From: Dehalococcoidia bacterium
GTDB lineage: Bacteria; Chloroflexota; Dehalococcoidia; Lucifugimonadales; Lucifugimonadaceae
Reading direction: 5' to 3'
NCBI GenBank assembly: GCA_028281895.1
Contig: JANQIZ010000232.1
Location: forward strand, 1 to 35,039
Length of the DNA stretch: 35,039 nucleotides
Position 1 is the first letter of the stretch. The number at the start of each line of letters is the position of its first letter. Below the pieces are notes generated by a model. The model saw only the letters and a list, made by a program, of their open reading frames with translations. It made no database searches and was not told where the DNA came from. Positions 21,034 through 35,039 of this stretch are shown one piece after another. The position numbers and the translations under genes were made by a program.

Positions 21034-21939
21034 CTATGCAGCGTCAGACGGAGCCGTCGCGTCGTAGAGCAGGGGCGCTCCGTGCGTGTCATCCAGCTCG
21101 AACACGCCGTAGTCGGAAGTGAACACCACCTCGGTTGCCCTCAGCGATGCGTCTCGCTCCCGCTCGGTGCGCCAGTCAACGCTTGTCAGGCCGATCAGAG
21201 CGTCTCTCTGAGCGATCACACCGGTCGCGTCACCAGACGAATCGACGAACAGGTTCTTCGATTCGAACAGATCAACGCCATTGAATGCGATCCCCGTGAA
21301 GAATCGCTTCAGGAGCTGTTCTTCCTGCCGGTCGTTGATGCGCTGATTGGCGCCGGAGCCGATCGCCGTCGCTGACTTCACGACATCGAACACGGCATGC
21401 GGATGCTGCACGGCATAGTCAGGATCGAACGGCTCCGAACCGTCCGAGTCTGTTGACGATGCGCCTCCGCCCAGCGCCTTCGCGATAGTCGCTGCGAAGT
21501 TGGAGAGCGAGAATGTCGCTCCTGCCGCTCCGAATGCGACTCCCCCGTTGAGACCGGGGTACAGAGCCTGCACGTCCTGGTCCTGCTTGCGCGCAGCGGC
21601 GTCACCAAACTGCCTGCCGATCATTCGGAACACATCGGTCGTTCCGTGCTGCCTCGCAAGCTTGTCCGTGATGACGATCTTCGCTCCGCGCTCAGTCGCC
21701 GTCAGATCGACAAGCGACATGTTGATCGACTGCTCAGTGCTGATCGTTGTGCCATCAACAAGGTCGGCAATCGTGAACTGTCCAACCTTCGGCACCCGAA
21801 CCGTCGACGCGCCCTTCGGCAGCCTGACCTTGTCGATCAGCTGCCAGGATGGCGAATTTGCTTCCTGGGTGTAGCGCGCCTCACGAATGATCGTGTTCTG
21901 CGCCTGCTCCAGGTTTCCAGTAGTGGCCGTCTCGACCAT
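21034..21939 (-). CDS. phage major capsid protein-like
   Basis: LIDKVRLPKGASTVRVPKVGQFTIADLVDGTTISTEQSINMSLVDLTATERGAKIVITDKLARQ... resembles HK97-fold/P22-like coat proteins; directly follows a scaffold-like gene. Confidence 0.72.
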   Translation of the reverse strand: MVETATTGNLEQAQNTIIREARYTQEANSPSWQLIDKVRLPKGASTVRVPKVGQFTIADLVDGTTISTEQSINMSLVDLTATERGAKIVITDKLARQHGTTDVFRMIGRQFGDAAARKQDQDVQALYPGLNGGVAFGAAGATFSLSNFAATIAKALGGGASSTDSDGSEPFDPDYAVQHPHAVFDVVKSATAIGSGANQRINDRQEEQLLKRFFTGIAFNGVDLFESKNLFVDSSGDATGVIAQRDALIGLTSVDWRTERERDASLRATEVVFTSDYGVFELDDTHGAPLLYDATAPSDAA

Positions 21940-21941
21940 GG

Positions 21942-22823
21942 CTACCTCACTTCACCTGTCTTCATGTAACGCAGGTCGGCCTCAGTCCACTCCCACGAAG
22001 GCTTCTCCCTGATTCGCTGGAGCCGCCTCTGCGGTGTCTCAGGCTGAGGACCTGCGCTGTATCCATTTTCGAGTTCGGTCTGAGGAGTCTCTGCCGGGAC
22101 ACGATCTCTGGCAGTGCCACTGCTGGCCTTTCCTAGCCTTCGCGCCAGGTTCTGCATCGCACGTGGTGTGGACGCAGAAGCCAGCGCTTCAAAGTCTTCA
22201 GGAGCAACCGAGTGTTCGCGGGCGAGCGACTGCGCAACGATGTAGCGGGCCTGAAGCTCCTGCTGCTGCACCGCATGCGTTCTCTCAGCCTCGGAGCGCT
22301 TGAGTTGCTGTTGTGTCGCCAGTGTCTGCCTGACCAGTGCGGCGTTCCGAGGCGATCTCACCGTTTGCGAAGCCGCGTCTGGTCCGACCTCCGCCGCCAG
22401 TTCACGCTCCTGAGTCCGGAGCGTCGCCTCTACTGCGGCATCGAGGTCATACCGTTCCAGTTGCTTGCTCGCGGCCGCCTCTGATCGACGCGCCTGTTCG
22501 ATCTGTTTCGCCCATGCCGCCTGCATCTTTGACACCTCGGCCTGCGAGTAGCTGCGAGGCTCAGGCTGTGCTGGCTCGCGCTTGCTCGCATCTTCGATAG
22601 CATCCGAGTCAGCGAGAGGCCTTTCGATCTCACTTGCATCGTGCTCTGGCTCGCGAGATTGAGTGTCGTCTTCTGGAGCTTCATCCAGGGTTGGCGACAG
22701 GAGCTCACGCTCACGTTCCAACTGCTCAGGCGAAGTTCCATCGATGATCTCGAACTCAAGCTCGGACGCAGAATCCGGATTGCTCTGTTGATCGAAAGAT
22801 TCAGCAGGTGACTCAGATACCAA
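21942..22823 (-). CDS. phage scaffolding protein-like (acidic, Glu/Gln/Ala-rich)
   Basis: Highly charged helical composition with coiled-coil centre (SKMQAAWAKQIEQARRSEAAASKQLERYD); stop is adjacent to the capsid start; TTG start with GGAGG SD. Confidence 0.65.
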   Translation of the reverse strand: MVSESPAESFDQQSNPDSASELEFEIIDGTSPEQLERERELLSPTLDEAPEDDTQSREPEHDASEIERPLADSDAIEDASKREPAQPEPRSYSQAEVSKMQAAWAKQIEQARRSEAAASKQLERYDLDAAVEATLRTQERELAAEVGPDAASQTVRSPRNAALVRQTLATQQQLKRSEAERTHAVQQQELQARYIVAQSLAREHSVAPEDFEALASASTPRAMQNLARRLGKASSGTARDRVPAETPQTELENGYSAGPQPETPQRRLQRIREKPSWEWTEADLRYMKTGEVR

Positions 22824-22946
22824 CTCCCACCTCCACAGATGCAGTCACGACTTGAGGCAGATCGCCTCAGACATGTTCCGAGTCTATGAATCTCAATGGG
22901 CGCGTTGAAGCAGCCTGTCAGGCAGAGGTTCTTACGCGCTGGATGC

Positions 22947-24668
22947 CTAGCGCGCTAGGCCGCGTCTTGGGCCAAGCCGCGCTGCGATCACAGGCCCGCC
23001 ATGATTGTGACGCGAGTAGGTGTTCAATGCCGGCCGCGGGTTGAACGGCGCCGTCGCCCAGTCTTCAACTTCGCATCGCTCAGCCCACTCGTTGTAGTAG
23101 CGAAGCATGCCGTCCGCGCGGTCCCTGTCACCGTTGATGAGATCATTGGATTCGACTCGATCTTCAGGGATGTTGTACAGCTCCCAGACGGCGCGAGAGT
23201 TCGGATCACCCGGATCGGCGATCTCGCTGACTAGCTTCCAATCGCCCATTCGCACAGCGCGGTTGCCCTCATGCTCCCAGGCGATCGGCTTATCCCGTTC
23301 CCACTCATGCCCGCTGAGCACGCTGGCAAAAGATTCGCCTTCGAGCGGCTTGATGTCGTGGCCATTGAACGTTGACGGATAGCTTGCACCGGCAAGATCG
23401 AGCAAAGTCGCGTTGATGTCTGTGATGTGCGCCGGATTGTTGAAGATCGACCCGCCTGAGTTCGTGCCATTCGGGTAGTGCATGATGAAAGGCGTCGAGA
23501 TACCGCCTTCGTAGGTGTAGTGCTTGAACAGCCGGAACGGCGTGTTGTTCACATTGGCCCAGGCGATATCGACGCTGGCGAAGGTATCGGGCGGACCAGG
23601 CTCGATATCGGGCGAGTTGCCAGTTCGGACTACGCGGCCATCGACCGTTGGATAGTTGTAGCGCTCTGGATCTGGCACCGTCGTGTCTTCGGCAAGGAAC
23701 TCTGCGCATCCCCCATTATCTGCGAGGAACACGATCACCGTGTTCTCGAACTCTCCGCTTGCCTTCAGTTTCTCAATCAGCCTGCCGATGCCGCGGTCAA
23801 CCTGCTCCACCTGGGCGGCATAGACCGCCATCTGAACATCCCGCCACTCCTTCTCCTGCTCGTCATCCCAGGGTCGGACTGCAGGCTCCCGTGGCGACAG
23901 CTCCCATCTGGGATCGACGACTCCCAGCCCGCGCTGTGACTCGTGGCGATTCATTCGCGTCTCGTCCCAGCCCTTGAGGTACTTCCCGCGATACCGCTCT
24001 ATATCGTCAGGCCACGCGTGCAGAGGCCAGTGAGGCGCGGTGAAGGCCATGTACAGGAAGAACGGCTCGTCTCTGTGGACAGCATCGTCGACAAACTGAA
24101 CAGCTTTACTGGAGATGACGTCTGTGAAGTGATAGTCCGTTGTCTCAACGCTGATCTGAGTGTCATCGTCCATCAGCATGTTCGGGTTGTAGTAGCTGCC
24201 GCCACCGGAGAGGATTCCATAGAAGCGGTCGAAGCCTCGGCCGCGCGGAGATGGATAGCCGGGCATGTTCGGGTGCCATCCGGGCGGCAGGCTCACCTGA
24301 TCGCCTGCGACGTGCCATTTGCCAGCCATCAGCGTCCGGTATCCGGAGCTCTTCAAGACCTCCGCAATCGTTACGCAGTTGTCGTTCAGGTAGCCCTGGT
24401 ATGCAGGGAGGCCCATGTTGTTGACCATGTGGCCAATACCAGCCTGGTGCGGATTGAGCCCTGTGAGAAGCGATGCGCGCGAGGGGCAGCAGCGCGCGGA
24501 GTTGTACATCTGCGTGAAGCGAATGCCACTTGCCGCCAGGCTATCGAGGTTTGGCGTGCTGATCTCTGACCCGTAGCAGCCAAGGTCCGACCAGCCAAGG
24601 TCGTCGGCCATGATGAGAACGATGTTGGGCCTTGTGCCGGATTCGGAATCTGCGCGCCTGTTGGTCAT
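22947..24668 (-). CDS. sulfatase (arylsulfatase family)
   Basis: RPNIVLIMADDLGWSDLGCYGSEISTPNLDSLAASGIRFTQMYNSARCCPSRASLLTGLNPHQAG: C-x-P-S-R formylglycine motif; YRTLMAGKWHV; NTVIVFLADNGG. Confidence 0.95.
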   Translation of the reverse strand: MTNRRADSESGTRPNIVLIMADDLGWSDLGCYGSEISTPNLDSLAASGIRFTQMYNSARCCPSRASLLTGLNPHQAGIGHMVNNMGLPAYQGYLNDNCVTIAEVLKSSGYRTLMAGKWHVAGDQVSLPPGWHPNMPGYPSPRGRGFDRFYGILSGGGSYYNPNMLMDDDTQISVETTDYHFTDVISSKAVQFVDDAVHRDEPFFLYMAFTAPHWPLHAWPDDIERYRGKYLKGWDETRMNRHESQRGLGVVDPRWELSPREPAVRPWDDEQEKEWRDVQMAVYAAQVEQVDRGIGRLIEKLKASGEFENTVIVFLADNGGCAEFLAEDTTVPDPERYNYPTVDGRVVRTGNSPDIEPGPPDTFASVDIAWANVNNTPFRLFKHYTYEGGISTPFIMHYPNGTNSGGSIFNNPAHITDINATLLDLAGASYPSTFNGHDIKPLEGESFASVLSGHEWERDKPIAWEHEGNRAVRMGDWKLVSEIADPGDPNSRAVWELYNIPEDRVESNDLINGDRDRADGMLRYYNEWAERCEVEDWATAPFNPRPALNTYSRHNHGGPVIAARLGPRRGLAR

Positions 24669-24857
24669 GTATCACCGGTGATGAAGAGTGGTTATCGAAC
24701 GTTGAGGAGACGATCGCCATCTTAGCCATTTCCAGAATGGTCGTGGCGCTGGTCGAACTGCTGACTCGCGGGATGATCAACATCGCGCACGGACATAGCC
24801 TGATACTCGGAGAAAGGGCCCGTGCAACTATTCCGCCTATGCTCATTTGCCTGAACG

Positions 24858-26351
24858 ATGAAGCTCACACAAGAAGCAGTTTTCGACGCGCTCGGCTATA
24901 TGCCGACGCCCGCGCAGCGAGAGATTCTCAATGACGATCACCTGACGCAGCTCGTGGCTGGCGGCTATCGAGGCGGGAAGTCTCGAACAGCCTCGATGAA
25001 GGCTGTGCTCTCCACGATGGAGTTCATTGGCAGGTATCGGGAGCAGGCTGCCGGGCACGTCGCATGGCTTGTAGCTGCCGACTACGAGGCGACCCGCGCC
25101 GAATTCATGCATCCGGAAGGCTCCATCGGCCGCGATCTCCAGATGCTATGGCCGGGCGTCAACTACACATCGCGTGTGGATCCGGGCGAGATCAAGCTGC
25201 CAGTTCCAGGTTCAGCAAATGGCCAGAGGCAAGGCGTATTCACGATCAGAACCAAGTCTGCTTTCGATCCGACCGGCCTTGGAATGGAATCGCCCATATG
25301 GATCGTTCTCTGCGAGGCGGCGCGCGTTAGCCAGGATGTCTTTCACCGTCTCCTGTCGAGGTGCTCGGAGGCGCGTAGAAGGTTTCCGGGGTTTGGCTGG
25401 CTGCACATGGAGGGCACGTTCGAGGGTTCACTCAGCTGGTACGCGTCGCAATGGACTAAGTGGCAGGCGAGAGCCGCCCAGAAGCAGGAGAACGCTCGGA
25501 GCTTCTCTCTGCCATCCCACTCGAACACCGCGCTGTTTCCTGACGGAGAAGACGATCCGCAGATCGTCGCACTCAGAAAAGCTCTTCCTGAAGCGAAGTT
25601 CAGAGAGAGGCACCTGGGGCTGCCTGTTCCACCCTCCGGCAGGGTGCACGCATCCTTCTCGACCGATACTCATGTGCGAAGTGCCGAATACGATCCGCAT
25701 GAGCCTGTGTACATCGGCATCGATCCCGGCTATTCAGGCCAGCCGTCTACATATGCGGTAGAGGTGTGCCAGCTCCGCCGATTCGACAGTGGCCATCGGC
25801 AATGGGCGGTCATCGACGAGATCGCAGTGAACCGGCTTGCGATGCCGGGCTTCACAGTTGCCGATGTTTGCGAACTGGCGATGAAGCGTGACTGGTGGTC
25901 GAATCCCAATAAACATGGTGTGATCGACACCGCAGGCACGGCTCATGCAGGCGCGCAGGAAAGTAACGCAGAGGTCTGGTGGAGGTTGACTGGCCTGGTG
26001 CTGCAGCACGAGCGCGTGAGCATTCTTCCTGGCATTGACCGCTTCGATTCATGCCTGAAAATCGATCCTGAGACCGGTGAGCCGGGCATAGTGATCGATT
26101 CCAGGTGCGAGCTGCTGATCTCGGAGTTGGGTGGTGGGCCTAACCCGTTCGATGGGCAGACTCACGTGTATCGATGGAACACAAATCGGACAGGAGATGT
26201 GGTTGGGCGTGTTCCGCGCGACGAGTATTGCGATGGGATCAAGGCGCTCACCTATCTCTTCGTCAACGTCATGGGCCACGCAGGCGTGCGTATGCGAACA
26301 CCCGTAGCGAGTAACAGGATCAGCGTTAGGAGCCGACGACGCAGAGGATGA
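24858..26351 (+). CDS. phage terminase large subunit-like protein
   Basis: Walker A-like QLVAGGYRGGKSRTASMKAV; VYIGIDPGYSGQPSTYAVEVCQL (RNase H-like nuclease Asp), HGVIDTAG. Confidence 0.8.
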   Translation: MKLTQEAVFDALGYMPTPAQREILNDDHLTQLVAGGYRGGKSRTASMKAVLSTMEFIGRYREQAAGHVAWLVAADYEATRAEFMHPEGSIGRDLQMLWPGVNYTSRVDPGEIKLPVPGSANGQRQGVFTIRTKSAFDPTGLGMESPIWIVLCEAARVSQDVFHRLLSRCSEARRRFPGFGWLHMEGTFEGSLSWYASQWTKWQARAAQKQENARSFSLPSHSNTALFPDGEDDPQIVALRKALPEAKFRERHLGLPVPPSGRVHASFSTDTHVRSAEYDPHEPVYIGIDPGYSGQPSTYAVEVCQLRRFDSGHRQWAVIDEIAVNRLAMPGFTVADVCELAMKRDWWSNPNKHGVIDTAGTAHAGAQESNAEVWWRLTGLVLQHERVSILPGIDRFDSCLKIDPETGEPGIVIDSRCELLISELGGGPNPFDGQTHVYRWNTNRTGDVVGRVPRDEYCDGIKALTYLFVNVMGHAGVRMRTPVASNRISVRSRRRRG

Positions 26352-26834
26352 CTAGGTGGACAGCGCTTCCTTGAGCAACTCCAGCGCTCTGATCGTGAAG
26401 CGGTCCATATTCTCTGTCCTGTTGCTGATTCCGGTTTCGAGAGTTGCCACGAGTTCAACGGGGCCGGAGATCGCCACGCATGTGTGTCCTGCTTCATCAC
26501 CGTAGCGATTGCCTGAGGGCCCGGCAGCGCCGGTTTCACTCAATCCCCAGGTCGTGTTGAGACGCTCACGCACAGCGCGGGCGCACAGGGCTGCATACGA
26601 CTCGCTGGCAGATCGCATGCCAGGGTAAGCATCAAGATCGATGCCCAGGAACTCTTCCCGAGCAGTGCCTGTATAGATCACCGCTCCGCCCATGAAGTAG
26701 GCCGAAGCTCCCGGAACGGCCAGGAGAACCGCCGACACGAGGCCTCCGCTTGATGATTCCGATACCGCAACCGTTTCGCCGCGCTCTTTAAGCAGTGTTC
26801 CCACTTCGGTTGCGAGCTCGCTGATCTCACTCAT
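26352..26834 (-). CDS. CinA C-terminal domain protein (nicotinamide-nucleotide amidohydrolase family)
   Basis: LLKERGETVAVSESSSGGLVSAVLLAVPGASAYFMGGAVIYTGTAREEFLGI, WGLSETGAAGPSGNRYGDEAGHTCVAI. Confidence 0.92.
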   Translation of the reverse strand: MSEISELATEVGTLLKERGETVAVSESSSGGLVSAVLLAVPGASAYFMGGAVIYTGTAREEFLGIDLDAYPGMRSASESYAALCARAVRERLNTTWGLSETGAAGPSGNRYGDEAGHTCVAISGPVELVATLETGISNRTENMDRFTIRALELLKEALST

Positions 26835-26972
26835 CGTTCCAATCCTTTTCCAGGCTGAGGTTTACGCCTGACATCTTGTGATTCACCAGGCAAATCACGA
26901 GCCATAGTCTTTTGTCATGCACCCAGGGCCGGCGTGATTGGAGCCGGCAGAAAGGTTGAGTGGAGGTCCCAT

Positions 26973-27671
26973 ATGCCAGACAACTTCACAAGCGAGCTTG
27001 TCGATTCAGCAGGTGAGATCTTCGCAACGGACGCGATCGGTGGATCGTCGGTGCATTATCCCATCGGGAAGCTCGCATGGGGCCCTTTGAACACCGCCAA
27101 CCTTACCGACACGGCCAACCCCCTGCCCATTCAGGTGAACGGCTCCGGCACGTCGTCGTCTGCGCCCTTCTTCGTACGCGGCGCAAACGGCGATTCTTCC
27201 ATTCCTATCACCGGCACTGTCACGATACAGGGCAACGCGTCCGTATCTATCACAGGTGGCTCTTCTGTCTCCATATCCAACGATTCTGCTGGAGAGATTG
27301 GTGTCGGACTCAATGCCATCGGCGGAAACTCTGGAGGGGCGCTGCAGACCTTCACTACCGTGCTGAGCTCAGCCCTTGAGACCGTATCTGCGAATCCCGG
27401 CCGGCTCTACGGGTACATGCTCACCAACCCGGACACCGCGTCGATCGTCTACGCCAAAGTGTTCTCTGATGATTCGACCGGTGTTACCAAGGGAAGCACC
27501 TCACCAGCTCTCAATCTGGGCATACCGCCTGAAGGCGGGGCTAATGTCACGTTCGCACAGGGCATCTTGATGTCCAGTGGGATCTCGGCGCTGGCAGCGG
27601 GTGGCGCGGGGTTGACCGATACATCGGCTCCTGCCAGCGACCTCGTCGTCAATCTCTTCTACAAAGATTGA
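26973..27671 (+). CDS. putative phage virion/tail-associated protein
   Basis: GGAGG SD before ATG 26973; beta-rich Ser/Gly/Thr-rich sequence (ITGTVTIQGNASVSITGGSSVSISNDS); inside the phage structural run. Confidence 0.6.
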   Translation: MPDNFTSELVDSAGEIFATDAIGGSSVHYPIGKLAWGPLNTANLTDTANPLPIQVNGSGTSSSAPFFVRGANGDSSIPITGTVTIQGNASVSITGGSSVSISNDSAGEIGVGLNAIGGNSGGALQTFTTVLSSALETVSANPGRLYGYMLTNPDTASIVYAKVFSDDSTGVTKGSTSPALNLGIPPEGGANVTFAQGILMSSGISALAAGGAGLTDTSAPASDLVVNLFYKD

Positions 27672-27723
27672 ACGCTAACTAGATAGTCGCTCATGCACGC
27701 GAAAGCGTCGGTGAAGTGAGGGG

Positions 27724-27897
27724 ATGAGCATGGGATTCCTGACAGCCGTGCTGGCGGCCCTTGGATTCAGGGCGGGTGCACCGGTAGTGGTGACAGGCCC
27801 GCTACATACAGAGAGAGTCCGAGTGAATGCGAGCTTCGCACATCGAGCAGTGACCGCAGGAGCCAGTTCGCACAGGGTGAGACTGAACGCCCGGTAG
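27724..27897 (+). CDS. small hypothetical protein (57 aa), not in supplied ORF track
   Basis: ATG 27724 (or 27730): MSMGFLTAVLAALGFRAGAPVVVTGPLHTERVRVNASFAHRAVTAGASSHRVRLNAR, TAG at 27895-27897; fills an otherwise empty gap in a same-strand run. Confidence 0.45.
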   Translation: MSMGFLTAVLAALGFRAGAPVVVTGPLHTERVRVNASFAHRAVTAGASSHRVRLNAR

Positions 27898-27922
27898 TGC
27901 ACTGCCTCAGAGGAGGGATGTG

Positions 27923-28252
27923 ATGACCAGGAGTATTTGGGGAGGGCCGGACGGAGTGCCGGCAGGGGCGGATCTGTCTCTCGAGGCGGTGTTGACGATC
28001 GACGGTGCGGTCAACCCGTCGCAGGTGACGTCCAGTGGCACGTTCAGCCTGTCCATAGGCAGCTCACTCCTGATCGACGAAGCGGCGGATGCTGTCACCA
28101 GTTCCGACGGACTCGTGAAGTGGGACATCACGTCGATTCAGTCATCGCCCTGGGTCGCAGGAACACATGAAGGCGACATCAAGCTTGTCGACTCAGGAGG
28201 CGCCGTTTCTTACTGGCCCGTCAGTCTCCAGGTGAGGAAGGTCGTCGATTAG
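27923..28252 (+). CDS. putative phage structural protein
   Basis: AGGAGG SD upstream; MTRSIWGGPDGVPAGADLSLEAVLTIDGAVNPSQVTSSGTFSLSIGSSLLIDEAADAVTSSDGLVKWDITSIQSSPWVAGTHEGDIKLVDSGGAVSYWPVSLQVRKV, beta-sandwich-like composition. Confidence 0.6.
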   Translation: MTRSIWGGPDGVPAGADLSLEAVLTIDGAVNPSQVTSSGTFSLSIGSSLLIDEAADAVTSSDGLVKWDITSIQSSPWVAGTHEGDIKLVDSGGAVSYWPVSLQVRKVVD

Positions 28253-28297
28253 CAAGCTGTCCGATACAGGTCTCGAAGTGGGTATTGAGGTGGTGGG

Positions 28298-29572
28298 ATG
28301 CCAGTGACACAACGTCGCAGCAGGAAGCAGTTGAGGCACTCGATCGGCCAGATGCTGGGTGCGCTAAGACAGGAGACAGGGACGGTCGAGCGAATGCCTA
28401 CCGGCACGGCTTCGAACCAGTCACGCATTGTCGACGACGCACTGGCCTTTGGTGTCGAGAACGAACACCGCGGCAGGTGGATCTACGCAACCGATTCAGC
28501 AGGAGTCGGCCAGACTCGCCGGGTAACCGCGTCGTCACTTGATGAGCGGACGCTCACCGTTGCCGAGCCATTCTCTTCGGTTACGGGCAGTAGCTGGCGC
28601 TATGAGCTCTGGGATGCAGACGCGCCACCCGAACGAGTGCATGAGTTCATTAACCAGGCGATCTCAGGCGTTACTCGCAAGGGCGCGGTGAACTCGATAG
28701 ACGGCTCTTTCCACACCGGCGGAGATGTCAGCGCATTCGAAGTTACGGATTCATGGACAGGTGTGCGGGATATCAGTTGGCGGTCGCGCTATACCGGCGC
28801 ACAGATAGCGTCGATGGACTCACCAGCACTTGCGATGTCCTCAAACGCGATCGTCGAATCCGACACTGCCGATTTCCGCGAAGGACGCGCGGCGAACCGA
28901 ATAACTATCACCGAGGCGGCTGGGGCTGGCGACGCACTTGCCGATGCGGTGTTCACCTCTCGTGAAGCGAGAGGCTTCAACCGGGTGGAGTTCTGGCACA
29001 AGTCGAGCGCTCCAACGACATCTTCCAATCTGGTTATTGAACTCCGACAGGGCTCGTCGACTCATGAATCCCTGGCGATCCCTGCGACTGTCGAAAACCG
29101 ATGGCAGTACGCGGTGCTCGAGATTTCCTCCCCTGAGAAGAACGGAAGCCTGGACGCCGTGCGAATAGCGGTTGGCAGCAGCGATGCCGGAGCTGTGACC
29201 GCGTGGATCGATGATGTGAAGCTGTCACGTGCCAACTCTGAGACCTGGCATCGGGTGCCCGCAGAGTTCTGGAGCGTGAATCCGGCAGACAGGTCCGTGA
29301 TCCTTGAGCCGAGCGCCCGGCTGCCCTACACAAGACTCCGTGTGACGGGTGTCAGGGCTCCTTCCCTGCTGACTTCTGATTCCCAGTTGTGCGAGATCGA
29401 TTCGCAGTACGTCATCAATGCCGCTGCGGCAGGTGTCTTGCGGTCTCGGAGCGATAGGCGCGGGCCCGAACGAGACGCAGCAGCGCGCCAGGCCGATCTG
29501 TATGAGCAGTTGGCGCAGACCATGCGGCTTCGCATGAACACACCTTCCAACATCAAGTGGGTGGACGACTAA
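28298..29572 (+). CDS. putative phage virion protein with internal carbohydrate-binding-like beta region
   Basis: FNRVEFWHKSSAPTTSSNLVIELRQGSS...AVTAWIDDVKL; stop overlaps the next start (TAATG). Confidence 0.6.
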   Translation: MPVTQRRSRKQLRHSIGQMLGALRQETGTVERMPTGTASNQSRIVDDALAFGVENEHRGRWIYATDSAGVGQTRRVTASSLDERTLTVAEPFSSVTGSSWRYELWDADAPPERVHEFINQAISGVTRKGAVNSIDGSFHTGGDVSAFEVTDSWTGVRDISWRSRYTGAQIASMDSPALAMSSNAIVESDTADFREGRAANRITITEAAGAGDALADAVFTSREARGFNRVEFWHKSSAPTTSSNLVIELRQGSSTHESLAIPATVENRWQYAVLEISSPEKNGSLDAVRIAVGSSDAGAVTAWIDDVKLSRANSETWHRVPAEFWSVNPADRSVILEPSARLPYTRLRVTGVRAPSLLTSDSQLCEIDSQYVINAAAAGVLRSRSDRRGPERDAAARQADLYEQLAQTMRLRMNTPSNIKWVDD

Positions 29573-31407
29573 TGCCTCAGCCATCGGTAACCAATGAAGG
29601 CGAAGTTCATCTCGATGGCCGTTCATATCGCATTGATGGCCATGTTCAGCGTGAGCTTGCGACGCGTTTTGCGCCGAAGACCGTAATCGGTGACTACACC
29701 GATGAGTCCAACCCTCTCGTTTCAACTGCTACCTGGCGCTCATGGGAGGACGGCTTCGGTCTTGAGACGATCAGGGATGCACGAGACTTCCAGCGCAATC
29801 GCTGGAGCTCGTTGTACACGCGTGTCCCGGGCCACCTGCTACTCGGCCCAAGAGTCCGCCGGATTGGTGGCGGACTTGGCACTTCGTTCAGCAGGTATTT
29901 CGATTTCAACGACAGCCTCTTCCTGGTCGAAGACAGGAGAGTGTATGCGTACAGCGATGCTAATGATTCGTTCGCGTCACTCCCGATGCGAGTCCTTGCC
30001 AACAGTGTTTCCGACGCCACCACGGGCGTGCTCAATGGAGAAAATATCACGGTAGTTGCCCAGGGCACTGCCACCGACTGGTCTGCAGACGCTAGCGATA
30101 CGACCGCGTGGAGCCGCGACACGACACCTATGAGCCGAGTGACGTTCTGGCGCGATCTGCTCTGGGGCGCCGATTCTTTCGGCAAGCTCTCGTTCACTAG
30201 CGACCTTGACGGTGGCTGGACGCAGGTGGCCGATCTTCCAGAGCCACTGGATGAAGTGGTCAACCTGTTTGCCGGTCCATCGGGAGACCGCGGAGACCCG
30301 GAGGCGCTGTACGTGGCGACCCGGCGCGGCCTGTGGGTCTACGACAATCTGAACGAGCGATTCCGCAACACGGGTCTCTCGTTACCGAAATCGAACGCGA
30401 CGGCCGCTGCCTGGAACGGATCTGTCTACTACACCAGTGAACAGCGGGTCTTCAGGTTCACACCTGGCCCGGCCAACGTTATCGACAACGTAACGCCACC
30501 CATCATCTCGGACAGCAACACTAGCCGGACGCAGCTTGGCTACTACAAGGAAGCACATCCGGGCATCGACGGAATCTTCTTCCTGACAGATGGTTCGGCA
30601 GTTATCCATCAGTGGGATGGCCATTCGTGGAACAGTTTTCCAGCGAACGGACATGGTGTGTTCGATGCCGGTGACGATGTTGGAGGCATGTTCCTTTCGA
30701 CATCCAATGGCAAGCATCGCCTGTTATTTGGTCACTTTGAGCCATTTGTGGCCGCTGGCACAGCTGCTGTCGCGCTTCCCGTCTTGAGCGCTGATCTCGC
30801 AGGGCAGAGCAGCTTCGGCTTCGTGCCGGAAGGCCATCTGCTAACACCCTGGTTCGACGGATTCGTATCAGGCAGAGACAAGTTGGCCGTGAGCATCGGG
30901 CTAGAGGTTTCGATTCCCGATTCCAACGAGAGCGTTCGAATCACCTACACACGAGACAATGGCGACACTTCGGGAACTGTCATTGAGATGAACGAGCCGG
31001 GATATCACGCCATTACGGTTCCGATCAGGAATGAGCAGAACGAGCCGACCGGCGTGCTGTTCGACAGGATCTCTCTTGGAGTCGAGATGAACATCAATTT
31101 CACTGACTCAACTCATCTCCTGCACAGTCCTGATGTCAGACGACTGTCTCTCAACTACATCAAGGCTCAGCCCATCCGATGGGCATACAGCTTCACCATC
31201 GACGTCGATGCCGAAGAGAGCGCGGCCGAGGTCAGAAGATCGCTGGAGCAGACATTTGAGAAGCAGTCGCTGGTCAGGTTCGCATACAAAGACGCCGCGC
31301 ACGGGCCCGTTGAGCCGAAGCTGGTTATCCCTGTGAGCCTGCGGAGCGAAGAAGAGACCGGTGTTCACGAGAAGGGCCGATTCCGGCTGGTGGTGACGGA
31401 GGTTTAG
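29572..31407 (+). CDS. large putative phage tail/appendage protein (beta-propeller-like)
   Basis: Repeated aromatic/Gly-rich blades (LYVATRRGLWVYDNLNERFRNTGLSL, SVYYTSEQRVFRFTPG, FFLTDGSAVIHQWDGHSW); start ATG 29572 coupled to previous stop. Confidence 0.62.
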   Translation: MPQPSVTNEGEVHLDGRSYRIDGHVQRELATRFAPKTVIGDYTDESNPLVSTATWRSWEDGFGLETIRDARDFQRNRWSSLYTRVPGHLLLGPRVRRIGGGLGTSFSRYFDFNDSLFLVEDRRVYAYSDANDSFASLPMRVLANSVSDATTGVLNGENITVVAQGTATDWSADASDTTAWSRDTTPMSRVTFWRDLLWGADSFGKLSFTSDLDGGWTQVADLPEPLDEVVNLFAGPSGDRGDPEALYVATRRGLWVYDNLNERFRNTGLSLPKSNATAAAWNGSVYYTSEQRVFRFTPGPANVIDNVTPPIISDSNTSRTQLGYYKEAHPGIDGIFFLTDGSAVIHQWDGHSWNSFPANGHGVFDAGDDVGGMFLSTSNGKHRLLFGHFEPFVAAGTAAVALPVLSADLAGQSSFGFVPEGHLLTPWFDGFVSGRDKLAVSIGLEVSIPDSNESVRITYTRDNGDTSGTVIEMNEPGYHAITVPIRNEQNEPTGVLFDRISLGVEMNINFTDSTHLLHSPDVRRLSLNYIKAQPIRWAYSFTIDVDAEESAAEVRRSLEQTFEKQSLVRFAYKDAAHGPVEPKLVIPVSLRSEEETGVHEKGRFRLVVTEV

Positions 31408-31701
31408 ATGGCACGATTGCTTGTCGCATCACTCAACATCGCCGACTCCGTTGATGCAGTTCAATTGGAGTCTGCGCCTCGGCCGCGAGTGAGAACTGCT
31501 GTGTTCAAAGCGAGAGCTGGCAATACGGGCTCAGTGTTCTTAGCGTCCGATTCCGCCGCAAAGTCATCCGGATTCGAGCTTGTGGCTGGTGACCGTGAGG
31601 AGTGGTCCATGCTCCCGGCATCTGTCAGAGGATCGACGTTCTGGGTGTGGGGTGAATCGTCCGGAGATCGACTGGATTATCAGTTCGTAGTGGAGGAGTA
31701 A
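31408..31701 (+). CDS. putative phage minor structural protein
   Basis: ATG 31408 abuts the previous TAG; MARLLVASLNIADSVDAVQLESAPRPRVRTAVFKARAGNTGSVFLASDSAAKSSGFELVAGDREEWSML. Confidence 0.6.
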   Translation: MARLLVASLNIADSVDAVQLESAPRPRVRTAVFKARAGNTGSVFLASDSAAKSSGFELVAGDREEWSMLPASVRGSTFWVWGESSGDRLDYQFVVEE

Positions 31702-32936: not shown

Positions 32937-32950
32937 GGGTGGAAATCTAC

Positions 32951-33184
32951 GTGTCCCAGGTAACGGTCTACTCGTCCAACATGTGCAGCACCTGCGAGAT
33001 GGTGAAGCAGTTTCTCGTGCTGCGAGGCGTTGAGTTCACCGAGAAGAATGTCTCGATCGACCTCGAAGGCAGGTCAGAGCTGGTCAAGCTGGGGTTTGAC
33101 TCAACTCCAGTGGCGGTGATCGGCGATCGGGTGCTAGAGGGCTTCGACACGAGCGAGATCGACGAAGCGCTTCAGACGTTGTAG
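32951..33184 (+). CDS. glutaredoxin-like / thioredoxin-fold protein
   Basis: VTVYSSNMCSTCEMVKQFLVLRGVEFTEKNVSIDLEGRSELVKLGFDSTPVAVIGDRVLEGFD: CSTC active site and TP loop. GTG start at 32951 assumed. Confidence 0.9.
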   Translation: MSQVTVYSSNMCSTCEMVKQFLVLRGVEFTEKNVSIDLEGRSELVKLGFDSTPVAVIGDRVLEGFDTSEIDEALQTL

Positions 33185-33241
33185 CTGGCTTAAGTAGCAC
33201 TCCGATACTATTCGACCACGTCACGAAAGGGAGCACGCCTC

Positions 33242-33487
33242 ATGGTTGCGACAACTTCAAACGACAAGGTCGACTTCGTCCTGCAGCAGATAGAGACGAT
33301 GGTCGCCAGTGAAGGCGGCACGCTCGACCTGGTCGCTTCTGGCAGTGACTCACTGTCTGTGAAGTACACGCCGGGAGTAAACGAAGAGTGCCCCGAGTGC
33401 GTTCCCTCGCTTGAGCAGGTCACCCAGTTCCTCACGGCTTCGCTGCAGATTCACGCTCCTGAGATCACTTCGGTCGAAGTTTCCTAG
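33242..33487 (+). CDS. NifU C-terminal-like small protein
   Basis: VDFVLQQIETMVASEGGTLDLVASGSDSLSVKYTPGVNEECPECVPSLEQVTQFLTASLQIHAPEITSVEV; size and CxxC position resemble the Nfu domain. Confidence 0.65.
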   Translation: MVATTSNDKVDFVLQQIETMVASEGGTLDLVASGSDSLSVKYTPGVNEECPECVPSLEQVTQFLTASLQIHAPEITSVEVS

Positions 33488-33576
33488 CTCGATCCCGGCA
33501 ACCGGAACCTTCTCCAAGAGCTGATGTAACATCGCCGCATATTCGGCCCTGCATCAGCATCCATGGAGGGAAGTCC

Positions 33577-35039
33577 GTGCATCTTCTCGAAGTCCTCAAC
33601 CCGGTCGCTCCCCAGCGCGGCGTGCTCAATGCTTTCCAGGCGAGTCCGCGGCCAGACACCCTCGACAACAAGACCGTTGGCCTGCTCTGGAGCGGAACTC
33701 ACGGCGGTGACATCGCGCTCAACACAGCCGGCCGCATGCTCCAGGAGCGATTTGAGAACGTAAAGGTCAACTTCTACAACGGGAACAACTACCCGGCTCC
33801 GCCACCGCTGGTGAAGCAGGCAGGAGAGGAGTGCGACGTCGTCATCGGCGCCACTGCCGATTGAGGGACGTGCGCGTCGTGGATGGTCCACGACATGATT
33901 GAGCTTGAGAAGATGGGCCGGCCGGCGGTCGCCATCGTCTCGGGACGCTTTGAGAGCGACGCTGTCGCAAGTTCTCGCGCATTCGGCATGCCTGACCTTC
34001 AGTGGGTTGTCGTGCCGCGCATCTACAGAAACCTTGAACCCGAGTTCTGCCAGAGCCAGACAGAGGATGCGATCGACGACATTGTCGGTTCGCTGACCGC
34101 GTCTATCGACGCGCGATCACCTTCTCTCGATACCGAATCGACGCACAGATTCGAGGGCGATGACCGGCACGACTCGATCCTGAAGATGAATGACGCCTTC
34201 ATCCGAGACGATCTTGGCGACGGCCTGTTCATGCATCCTCCAACGCGTGAAGCGGTCGATGAGATGCTCACGGGCACCAGTCTTTCTCCTGACCATGTCG
34301 TGTGTGACATGCCGCCGGGATTCGGGCTGGCGACTGTCGAGAAGATCGCCGTGAATGCCGTTATGGCAGGAGCCAGGCCTGAACATCTGCCTGTTGTGAT
34401 AGCGGGAGTGAAGGCGCTCTCGAAGATCGGCGGGCAGGGCGGCAAGTCACTGCTCATGTCCACCAGCCCGCAGGCTCCACTGCTCATCGTCAATGGTCCG
34501 ATCACGAACAAGATCGGTCTTAATCCACGATCAGCGCTCGGACCGGGACGCGACAACCAGGTCAATACGCTCATCGGACGTGCTTTCGCTCTCTGCTTCC
34601 GCAACATCGGCTACTGGTATCCAAACCAGATGGACATGGACACTATCGGCACCTCCCGCAAGTTCATCCAGTGCATCGCGGAGAACGAAGAGATGAGTCC
34701 GTGGGAGCCTTTCCACGTAGATCGCGGGTTCAAGAAGGATGAAAGCACGCTTAGCCTCTTCATCACCGATGGAGAGCTCGATGTGCAGGACCAGGGCAAC
34801 CACACGGCCGAGGGTTTGCTGAGAAACCTTGCCTACGGCTGTACGTTCGGAACTCGAAGCCTGCAAGGAGAAAAAGGTGGCGTGCAGCGCCTGATCCTCA
34901 TGCCTCCCGATGTGGCCCGCCCCGTTGGAGCACAGGGATTCTCAAAGCAGGCTACGCAGGAGTTCATCCACGAACATGCCCGCGGCAGCTTTGGTCAGAT
35001 GATCGAGTACATGCCGCTTGAGGGAGAAGCGAGGGTTAG
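33577..35039 (+). CDS. UGSC family (seleno)protein with in-frame UGA (Sec) at 33862-33864; continues past window end
   Basis: GTG start with upstream GGAGGG. The frame reads ...QAGEECDVVIGATAD-(TGA)-GTCASWMVHDMIELEKMGRPAVAIVSGRFESDAVASSRAFGMPDLQWVVVPRIYRN... and stays open from 33865 to 35039. The U-G-T-C core resembles the UGSC motif. Confidence 0.85.
33876..33894 (+). promoter_or_regulatory. candidate bacterial SECIS element
   Basis: GTCGTGGA-TGG-TCCACGAC perfect 8-bp stem with 3-nt loop, starting 11 nt after the in-frame TGA, with GGU(C) at the apex. Confidence 0.72.

What the first reader, a model, noticed from the sequence alone, without database searches (positions are those of the whole stretch)
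33577..35039. Hidden UGSC-type selenoprotein: the 95-aa ORF continues through an in-frame TGA for more than 390 codons
The ORF track stops at 33864. I translated the same frame onward to the last base and found no further stop. The residues around the TGA read GATAD-U-GTC-ASWMVHDMIELEKMGRPAVAI. This fits the UGSC family, known from marine metagenome selenoproteomes, in which Sec (or Cys) sits in a U/C-G-S-C motif. Here the third residue is Thr (UGTC). The conserved protein sequence on both sides argues against a genuine stop or a pseudogene. It implies that the host encodes SelA/B/C/D.
Basis: partly seen in the sequence, partly recalled or inferred. Interest (0 to 1): 0.85.

Follow-up and report, generated by a model that had tools for sequence, protein, structure and literature searches.

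The report
Fused UGSC-type selenoprotein gene
A gene that looks like a 95-residue fragment is the start of a roughly 547-residue enzyme in which an internal 'stop' codon is almost certainly read as selenocysteine; it belongs to a known but functionally uncharacterised selenoprotein family, here fused to a widespread partner domain that current family libraries do not list.

Summary
Frame 33577-35039 carries one in-frame TGA (33862-33864) and stays open to the contig end, which cuts off about 60 residues. Residues 6-174 match Pfam UGSC (E 3e-32). The host assembly has tRNA-Sec, SelA, SelD (with its own in-frame TGA) and the N-terminal half of SelB at a contig edge. All 38 close hits spanning residue 96 have TGA there. 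The eight codons after it show zero synonymous variation, the lowest in the gene, and encode a hairpin whose loop starts 19 nt after UGA; this geometry recurs in distant members with different stem sequences. Cys replaces Sec in five distant homologs; four of their five genomes lack SelA, against 1 of 15 Sec-form genomes. New here: the UGSC domain resembles the C-terminal Sec domain of reductase subunit GrdB and is modelled as flavodoxin-like, not thioredoxin-like; the partner domain is fused or adjacent in 28 of 29 cases found by UGSC alone and is absent from Pfam and NCBIfam. Substrate unknown; a GrdB-like reductive cleavage is proposed.

The parts
33577..35039 (+). UGSC/Unknown_1 fusion selenoprotein gene, GTG start, truncated by the contig end (487 of about 547 residues present)
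33565..33570 (+). Shine-Dalgarno-like GGAGGG, 6 nt before the GTG start
   Evidence: sequence; inference
33592..34098 (+). UGSC domain (Pfam PF24696), residues 6-174; modelled in an ortholog as flavodoxin-like beta-alpha repeats with Sec96 just before helix 97-112
33862..33864 (+). In-frame TGA read as selenocysteine 96, motif U-G-T-C
33876..33894 (+). Bacterial SECIS-like hairpin GUCGUGGA-UGG-UCCACGAC, loop starting 19 nt after UGA
34159..35039 (+). C-terminal partner domain ('Unknown_1' of the 2008 ocean study), no Pfam or NCBIfam model, incomplete here

Best explanation
The gene encodes a two-domain selenoenzyme. UGA 33862-33864 is decoded as Sec96 by the host's SelA/SelB/SelC/SelD machinery, directed by the hairpin immediately downstream. 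The N-terminal UGSC domain has a flavodoxin-like alpha/beta fold that places Sec96 and Cys99 (U-G-T-C) at the start of a helix, as the motif is placed in the C-terminal domain of GrdB. The C-terminal Unknown_1 domain is the near-constant partner, supplied as a separate adjacent protein in many relatives. Most likely function, inferred: a GrdB-like reductive cleavage in catabolism of a small organic acid, in which the Sec selenolate attacks a carbon-heteroatom bond and Cys99 resolves the selenide, while the Unknown_1 domain binds the substrate. Shown by sequence evidence: Sec decoding signals, host machinery, family membership, partner coupling. Supported but not proven: kinship to GrdB's Sec domain and the fold (model). 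Inferred only: reaction, substrate and the division of labour between the domains. The confidence given is for the core (a Sec-decoded UGSC-family selenoprotein); for the GrdB-like reaction alone it is about 0.35.
For: Pfam UGSC E 3.4e-32 across the TGA. tRNA-Sec, SelA, SelD and partial SelB in the same assembly. TGA in 38 of 38 close hits spanning the site. Codons 100-107 have zero synonymous variation, the lowest of 480 windows; gene mean 0.52. Hairpin stem of 6 bp or more in 89% of 79 Sec genes, mean 7.2 bp against 4.7 in synonymous recodings and 5.4 in five Cys genes. Of 97 UGSC domains in the wide scan, 79 have Sec and 5 have Cys in the aligned motif. SelA is present in 14 of 15 Sec-form genomes and 1 of 5 Cys-form genomes, Fisher p 0.005. 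hhalign UGSC against GrdB: E 3e-6, probability 88, Sec on Sec; motif-masked E 0.0037 in the same register; shuffled and reversed controls 0.013-0.7. Model pLDDT 92.4; Foldseek matches include lumazine synthase, WrbA and TIR. Unknown_1 is beside or fused to 28 of 29 UGSC domains found by the UGSC model alone. Neighbours in diverse genomes are catabolic: TctC, MFS, MmgE/PrpD, enoyl-CoA hydratase, amidase, IclR.
Against: No expression or selenium data. The GrdB link is remote and weakens when the motif is masked (probability 9%). Unknown_1 shows no detectable kinship to GrdE, so the protein is not a GrdE/GrdB pair. The neighbours of the window's own orthologs are not conserved between genera, so no pathway can be read from them. 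The window's single hairpin against same-protein synonymous recodings is only marginal (p 0.08); the strength lies in the comparative data.
Confidence: 0.95

Rival explanations
1. It is a UGSC selenoprotein, but a thiol-disulfide oxidoreductase with a thioredoxin-like fold, as suggested in 2008, and not a GrdB-like reductase.
For: UxxC motif; [quoted passage not shown] A glutaredoxin gene lies just upstream in the window (32939-33181).
Against: The confident model has five parallel beta-alpha units, with flavodoxin-like structures and no thioredoxin listed among the top 50 Foldseek matches. The GrdB Sec domain aligns Sec on Sec. Glutaredoxin was not among the neighbours shared with relatives.
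Confidence: 0.2
2. The TGA is a genuine stop: a 95-aa product plus a second protein started at ATG 33883.
For: A 385-codon ORF starting at 33883 exists.
Against: The stop would lie inside a conserved domain that is continuous in Cys-form homologs; TGA is kept in every close hit spanning the site, followed by a synonymously frozen hairpin, and the host has Sec machinery.
Confidence: 0.02
3. Sequencing or assembly error or pseudogene: TGC or TGT misread as TGA.
For: Fragmented assembly (395 contigs).
Against: The same TGA is present in independent genomes down to 63% identity and again in paralogs at 42-52%.
Confidence: 0.005
4. TGA is reassigned to an ordinary amino acid throughout the genome.
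For: None found.
Against: Two same-genus orthologs of this very gene terminate with TGA (L032, L033); Cys, not Trp, replaces it elsewhere.
Confidence: 0.005

Closest known systems
UGSC family (seleno)protein, Pfam PF24696 / NCBIfam NF041046
   Same: Sec (or Cys) in a U-G-x-C motif at the same place; E 3.4e-32 over the whole domain; Sec machinery in the host.
   Different: Motif UGTC instead of UGSC; below NCBIfam's equivalog cut-off (103.8 against 125 bits); fused to a second domain.
UGSC/Unknown_1 fusion of the Global Ocean Sampling study (PMC2398784, Figure S1A)
   Same: Same two-domain description, UGSC domain fused to a conserved domain of unknown function.
   Different: That study's alignment is only in a supplement that could not be read here, so identity of the domain rests on the description. 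The invariant Cys of the split partner proteins (MAGC) is Ala in the window's clade.
Glycine/sarcosine/betaine/proline reductase subunit GrdB/PrdB (PF07355)
   Same: U-G-T/S-C motif before a helix, followed by an E-x-E-(K/R)-x-G-x-P-type stretch; remote profile match to the C-terminal Sec domain.
   Different: No match to the PF07355 model itself; no GrdE partner; partner domain not detectably related to GrdE.

Membership tests
UGSC selenoprotein family (PF24696) | Full-length match above the curated cut-off | tested here: met
   112.4 bits against 25, positions 2-171 of 172
UGSC selenoprotein family (PF24696) | Sec or Cys followed by G-x-C | tested here: met
   UGTC; in 79 Sec homologs 50 UGSC, 10 UGTC, 10 UGGC, 3 UGAC
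UGSC equivalog NF041046 | Score above NCBIfam cut-off of 125 bits | tested here: not met
   103.8 bits; so filed under the Pfam family, not under this narrower model
Bacterial selenoprotein | Host has SelA, SelB, SelC, SelD | tested here: met
   (SelB partial at contig edge)
Bacterial selenoprotein | SECIS hairpin directly downstream of UGA, conserved across homologs | tested here: met
Bacterial selenoprotein | Selenium incorporation in the protein | not testable with these tools
   needs 75Se labelling or mass spectrometry
GrdB/PrdB reductases (PF07355) | Match to the GRDB model | tested here: not met
   only UGSC reported for the protein
GrdB/PrdB reductases (PF07355) | Kinship of the C-terminal Sec domain | tested here: inconclusive
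   hhalign E 3e-6, masked 0.0037, controls 0.013-0.7
GrdB/PrdB reductases (PF07355) | GrdE/PrdA-type pyruvoyl partner | tested here: not met
   Unknown_1 against GrdE probability 0.1%; no PF09338 hit in the own genome
Thioredoxin-fold oxidoreductases | Thioredoxin fold | tested here: not met
   predicted model with parallel beta-alpha units; flavodoxin-like matches; model only

The most novel reading that the evidence does not exclude
UGSC proteins together with the uncatalogued Unknown_1 domain form an unrecognised second branch of Sec-dependent reductive-cleavage enzymes beside the glycine/betaine/proline reductases. It would be widespread in marine and soil bacteria, often in several copies per genome, and would use a new partner domain in place of GrdE.
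Probability: 0.35. Interest if true: 0.75.

Novelty: new member of a known kind. Interest (0 to 1): 0.42.

Why it matters
[quoted passage not shown] A link to the Sec domain of GrdB and the near-constant coupling to a second, uncatalogued domain turn 'unknown redox protein' into a testable two-part reductase. Practically, ordinary ORF callers split these genes at the UGA, so many are probably annotated as two fragments.

Tried and rejected
A stop with re-initiation at 33883, an assembly error, and a genome-wide recoding of TGA were rejected on ortholog evidence. Unknown_1 as a GrdE homolog was rejected. No close solved structure was found by sequence. Foldseek of Unknown_1 alone gives only weak hits to class I fumarase (E 2e-3, TM 0.28) and cyanuric acid hydrolase, too weak to use. 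Rfam has no matching SECIS model. Raw folding energy of the region downstream of UGA is not distinctive against same-gene windows (mean z -0.8); the positional hairpin test is the informative one. Gene neighbours of the window's orthologs differ between genera. A paper search for SAR202 with selenoprotein found nothing, and one for SAR202 with selenocysteine only two papers with passing mentions. The coupling count is biased, because one scan pattern lies in Unknown_1; one search is the unbiased count.

Full report
Observation. The ORF 33577-33864 ends at TGA 33862-33864, and the same frame then runs without a stop to the last base. Read through, it gives 487 residues with Sec at 96. The contig ends at 35039, and orthologs are about 546-547 residues, so the gene is cut by the assembly and not by biology. 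A GGAGGG sits 6 nt before the GTG start.

Family. The read-through protein matches Pfam UGSC over residues 6-174 (E 3.4e-32) and NCBIfam UGSC_fam at 103.8 bits, below that model's cut-off of 125. In the same assembly the UGSC model finds a second gene on contig C367, with motif UGSC and also one in-frame TGA.

Machinery. The assembly has tRNA-Sec (69.7 bits; ARAGORN tRNA-SeC with anticodon tca), SelA (458 bits), the N-terminal half of SelB at a contig edge (296 bits) and SelD (376 bits, with its own in-frame TGA).

Conservation. In 100 related genomes, all 38 hits at 63% identity or more that span residue 96 have exactly one TGA; paralogs at 42-52% identity also have it. Thirty sequences (the window's and 29 orthologs) read out show ATAD-U-GTC-ASW in every case. 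Two of the orthologs terminate normally with TGA, so TGA is a stop elsewhere in the same genes.

Decoding signal. Across these sequences the eight codons 100-107 show zero synonymous variation, the lowest of 480 windows, where the gene mean is 0.52. They encode the hairpin GUCGUGGA-UGG-UCCACGAC, whose loop starts 19 nt after UGA (33876-33894). In 79 Sec-form genes of the wider family the best stem in that position averages 7.2 bp, against 4.7 in synonymous recodings. Distant members reach it with different sequences, for example GCCCGC-CGUGUU-GCGGGC or GACCGCG-CGUGA-CGCGGUC. Five Cys-form genes average 5.4 bp and none is unusual.

Sec/Cys exchange. A scan of 85,462 species genomes with a family alignment returned at least 569 relatives; the best 80 loci come mainly from Chloroflexota, Proteobacteria, Actinobacteria, Rokubacteria and Acidobacteria, with one haloarchaeon. 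Of 97 UGSC domains in them, 79 have Sec, 5 have Cys in the aligned motif, and 13 are divergent or truncated. The Cys forms are in Nonomuraea, a Mycobacteriaceae MAG, another actinomycete MAG, Sphingomonas and Natronomonas. SelA is present in 14 of 15 tested Sec-form genomes and in 1 of 5 Cys-form genomes (Fisher p 0.005). Together these results make the Sec reading secure short of an experiment.

Architecture. The C-terminal half corresponds in description to the 'Unknown_1' domain that the 2008 ocean survey reported fused to UGSC (PMC2398784). It has no Pfam or NCBIfam model. In loci chosen by the UGSC model alone it lies fused or adjacent on the same strand in 28 of 29 cases. In the window's own genome both arrangements occur: fused here, split on C367. 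The split proteins carry an invariant Cys (MAGC) that is Ala in the window's clade.

Fold and relations. A model of a full-length ortholog (pLDDT 92.4) shows beta-alpha repeats in the UGSC domain with Sec96 just before a helix. Foldseek's matches include flavodoxin-like proteins such as lumazine synthase, WrbA and TIR domains, which argues against the thioredoxin fold suggested in 2008. Profile comparison with GrdB proteins taken from related genomes aligns 99 columns with Sec on Sec (E 3e-6, probability 88). With the motif masked the same register remains (E 0.0037), against 0.013-0.7 for reversed and shuffled controls. This is suggestive of distant kinship, not proof. Unknown_1 is not detectably GrdE.

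Function. Neighbours in diverse genomes are catabolic genes: TctC receptors, MFS and ABC transporters, MmgE/PrpD, enoyl-CoA hydratases, amidases and IclR regulators. GrdB-type enzymes are known from amino-acid reduction, and a GrdB-like pair has been proposed to cleave the C-F bond of fluoroacetate by attack of Sec (PMC10838667). I therefore propose a Sec-dependent reductive cleavage of a small organic acid, with Unknown_1 as the substrate-binding half. The reaction and substrate are inference. The confidence of 0.95 given for the best explanation refers to its core, a Sec-decoded UGSC-family selenoprotein; for the GrdB-like reaction alone I would say about 0.35.

Verdict. The finding is right and robust, but the family and the fusion were already described. 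The added value lies in the GrdB link, the revised fold and the uncatalogued partner domain.

Noticed in passing
G000 contig C367:3200-4800 (locus L024/L080): Second UGSC selenoprotein of the same genome (motif UGSC) as a single-domain gene, preceded by a separate Unknown_1-type gene.
   Followed up: yes
G000 contig C167:4343-5269 (locus L026): SelD of this genome has an in-frame TGA and is probably itself a selenoprotein.
   Followed up: no
window 21037-31698: Phage-like cluster: major head protein (phrog_267), terminase large subunit (phrog_2) and several unidentified ORFs; part of it (about 26.4-31.7 kb) is kept upstream of the UGSC gene in two same-genus genomes (L061, L062), possibly a prophage remnant or gene-transfer-agent-like element.
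   Followed up: partly
window 32939-33487: Glutaredoxin-like and weak NifU-like small genes directly upstream of the selenoprotein gene; not found among the neighbours shared with relatives.
   Followed up: partly
L171-L183 (genomes G001, G007, G063): Several relatives carry many GrdB-type genes, with an in-frame UGA in a UGSC/UGTC motif in the 12 that were read out, accompanied by GrdE genes; the window's own genome has only one weak partial GrdB match and no GrdE match.
   Followed up: partly
L092, L103, L116, L125, L132: Some genomes carry tandem or clustered UGSC/Unknown_1 genes, suggesting substrate diversification.
   Followed up: no
L127, L135, L138, L142, L153, L154: Divergent UGSC-like domains fused to Unknown_1 in which the Sec/Cys position is replaced by other residues; possibly a non-redox branch.
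   Followed up: no
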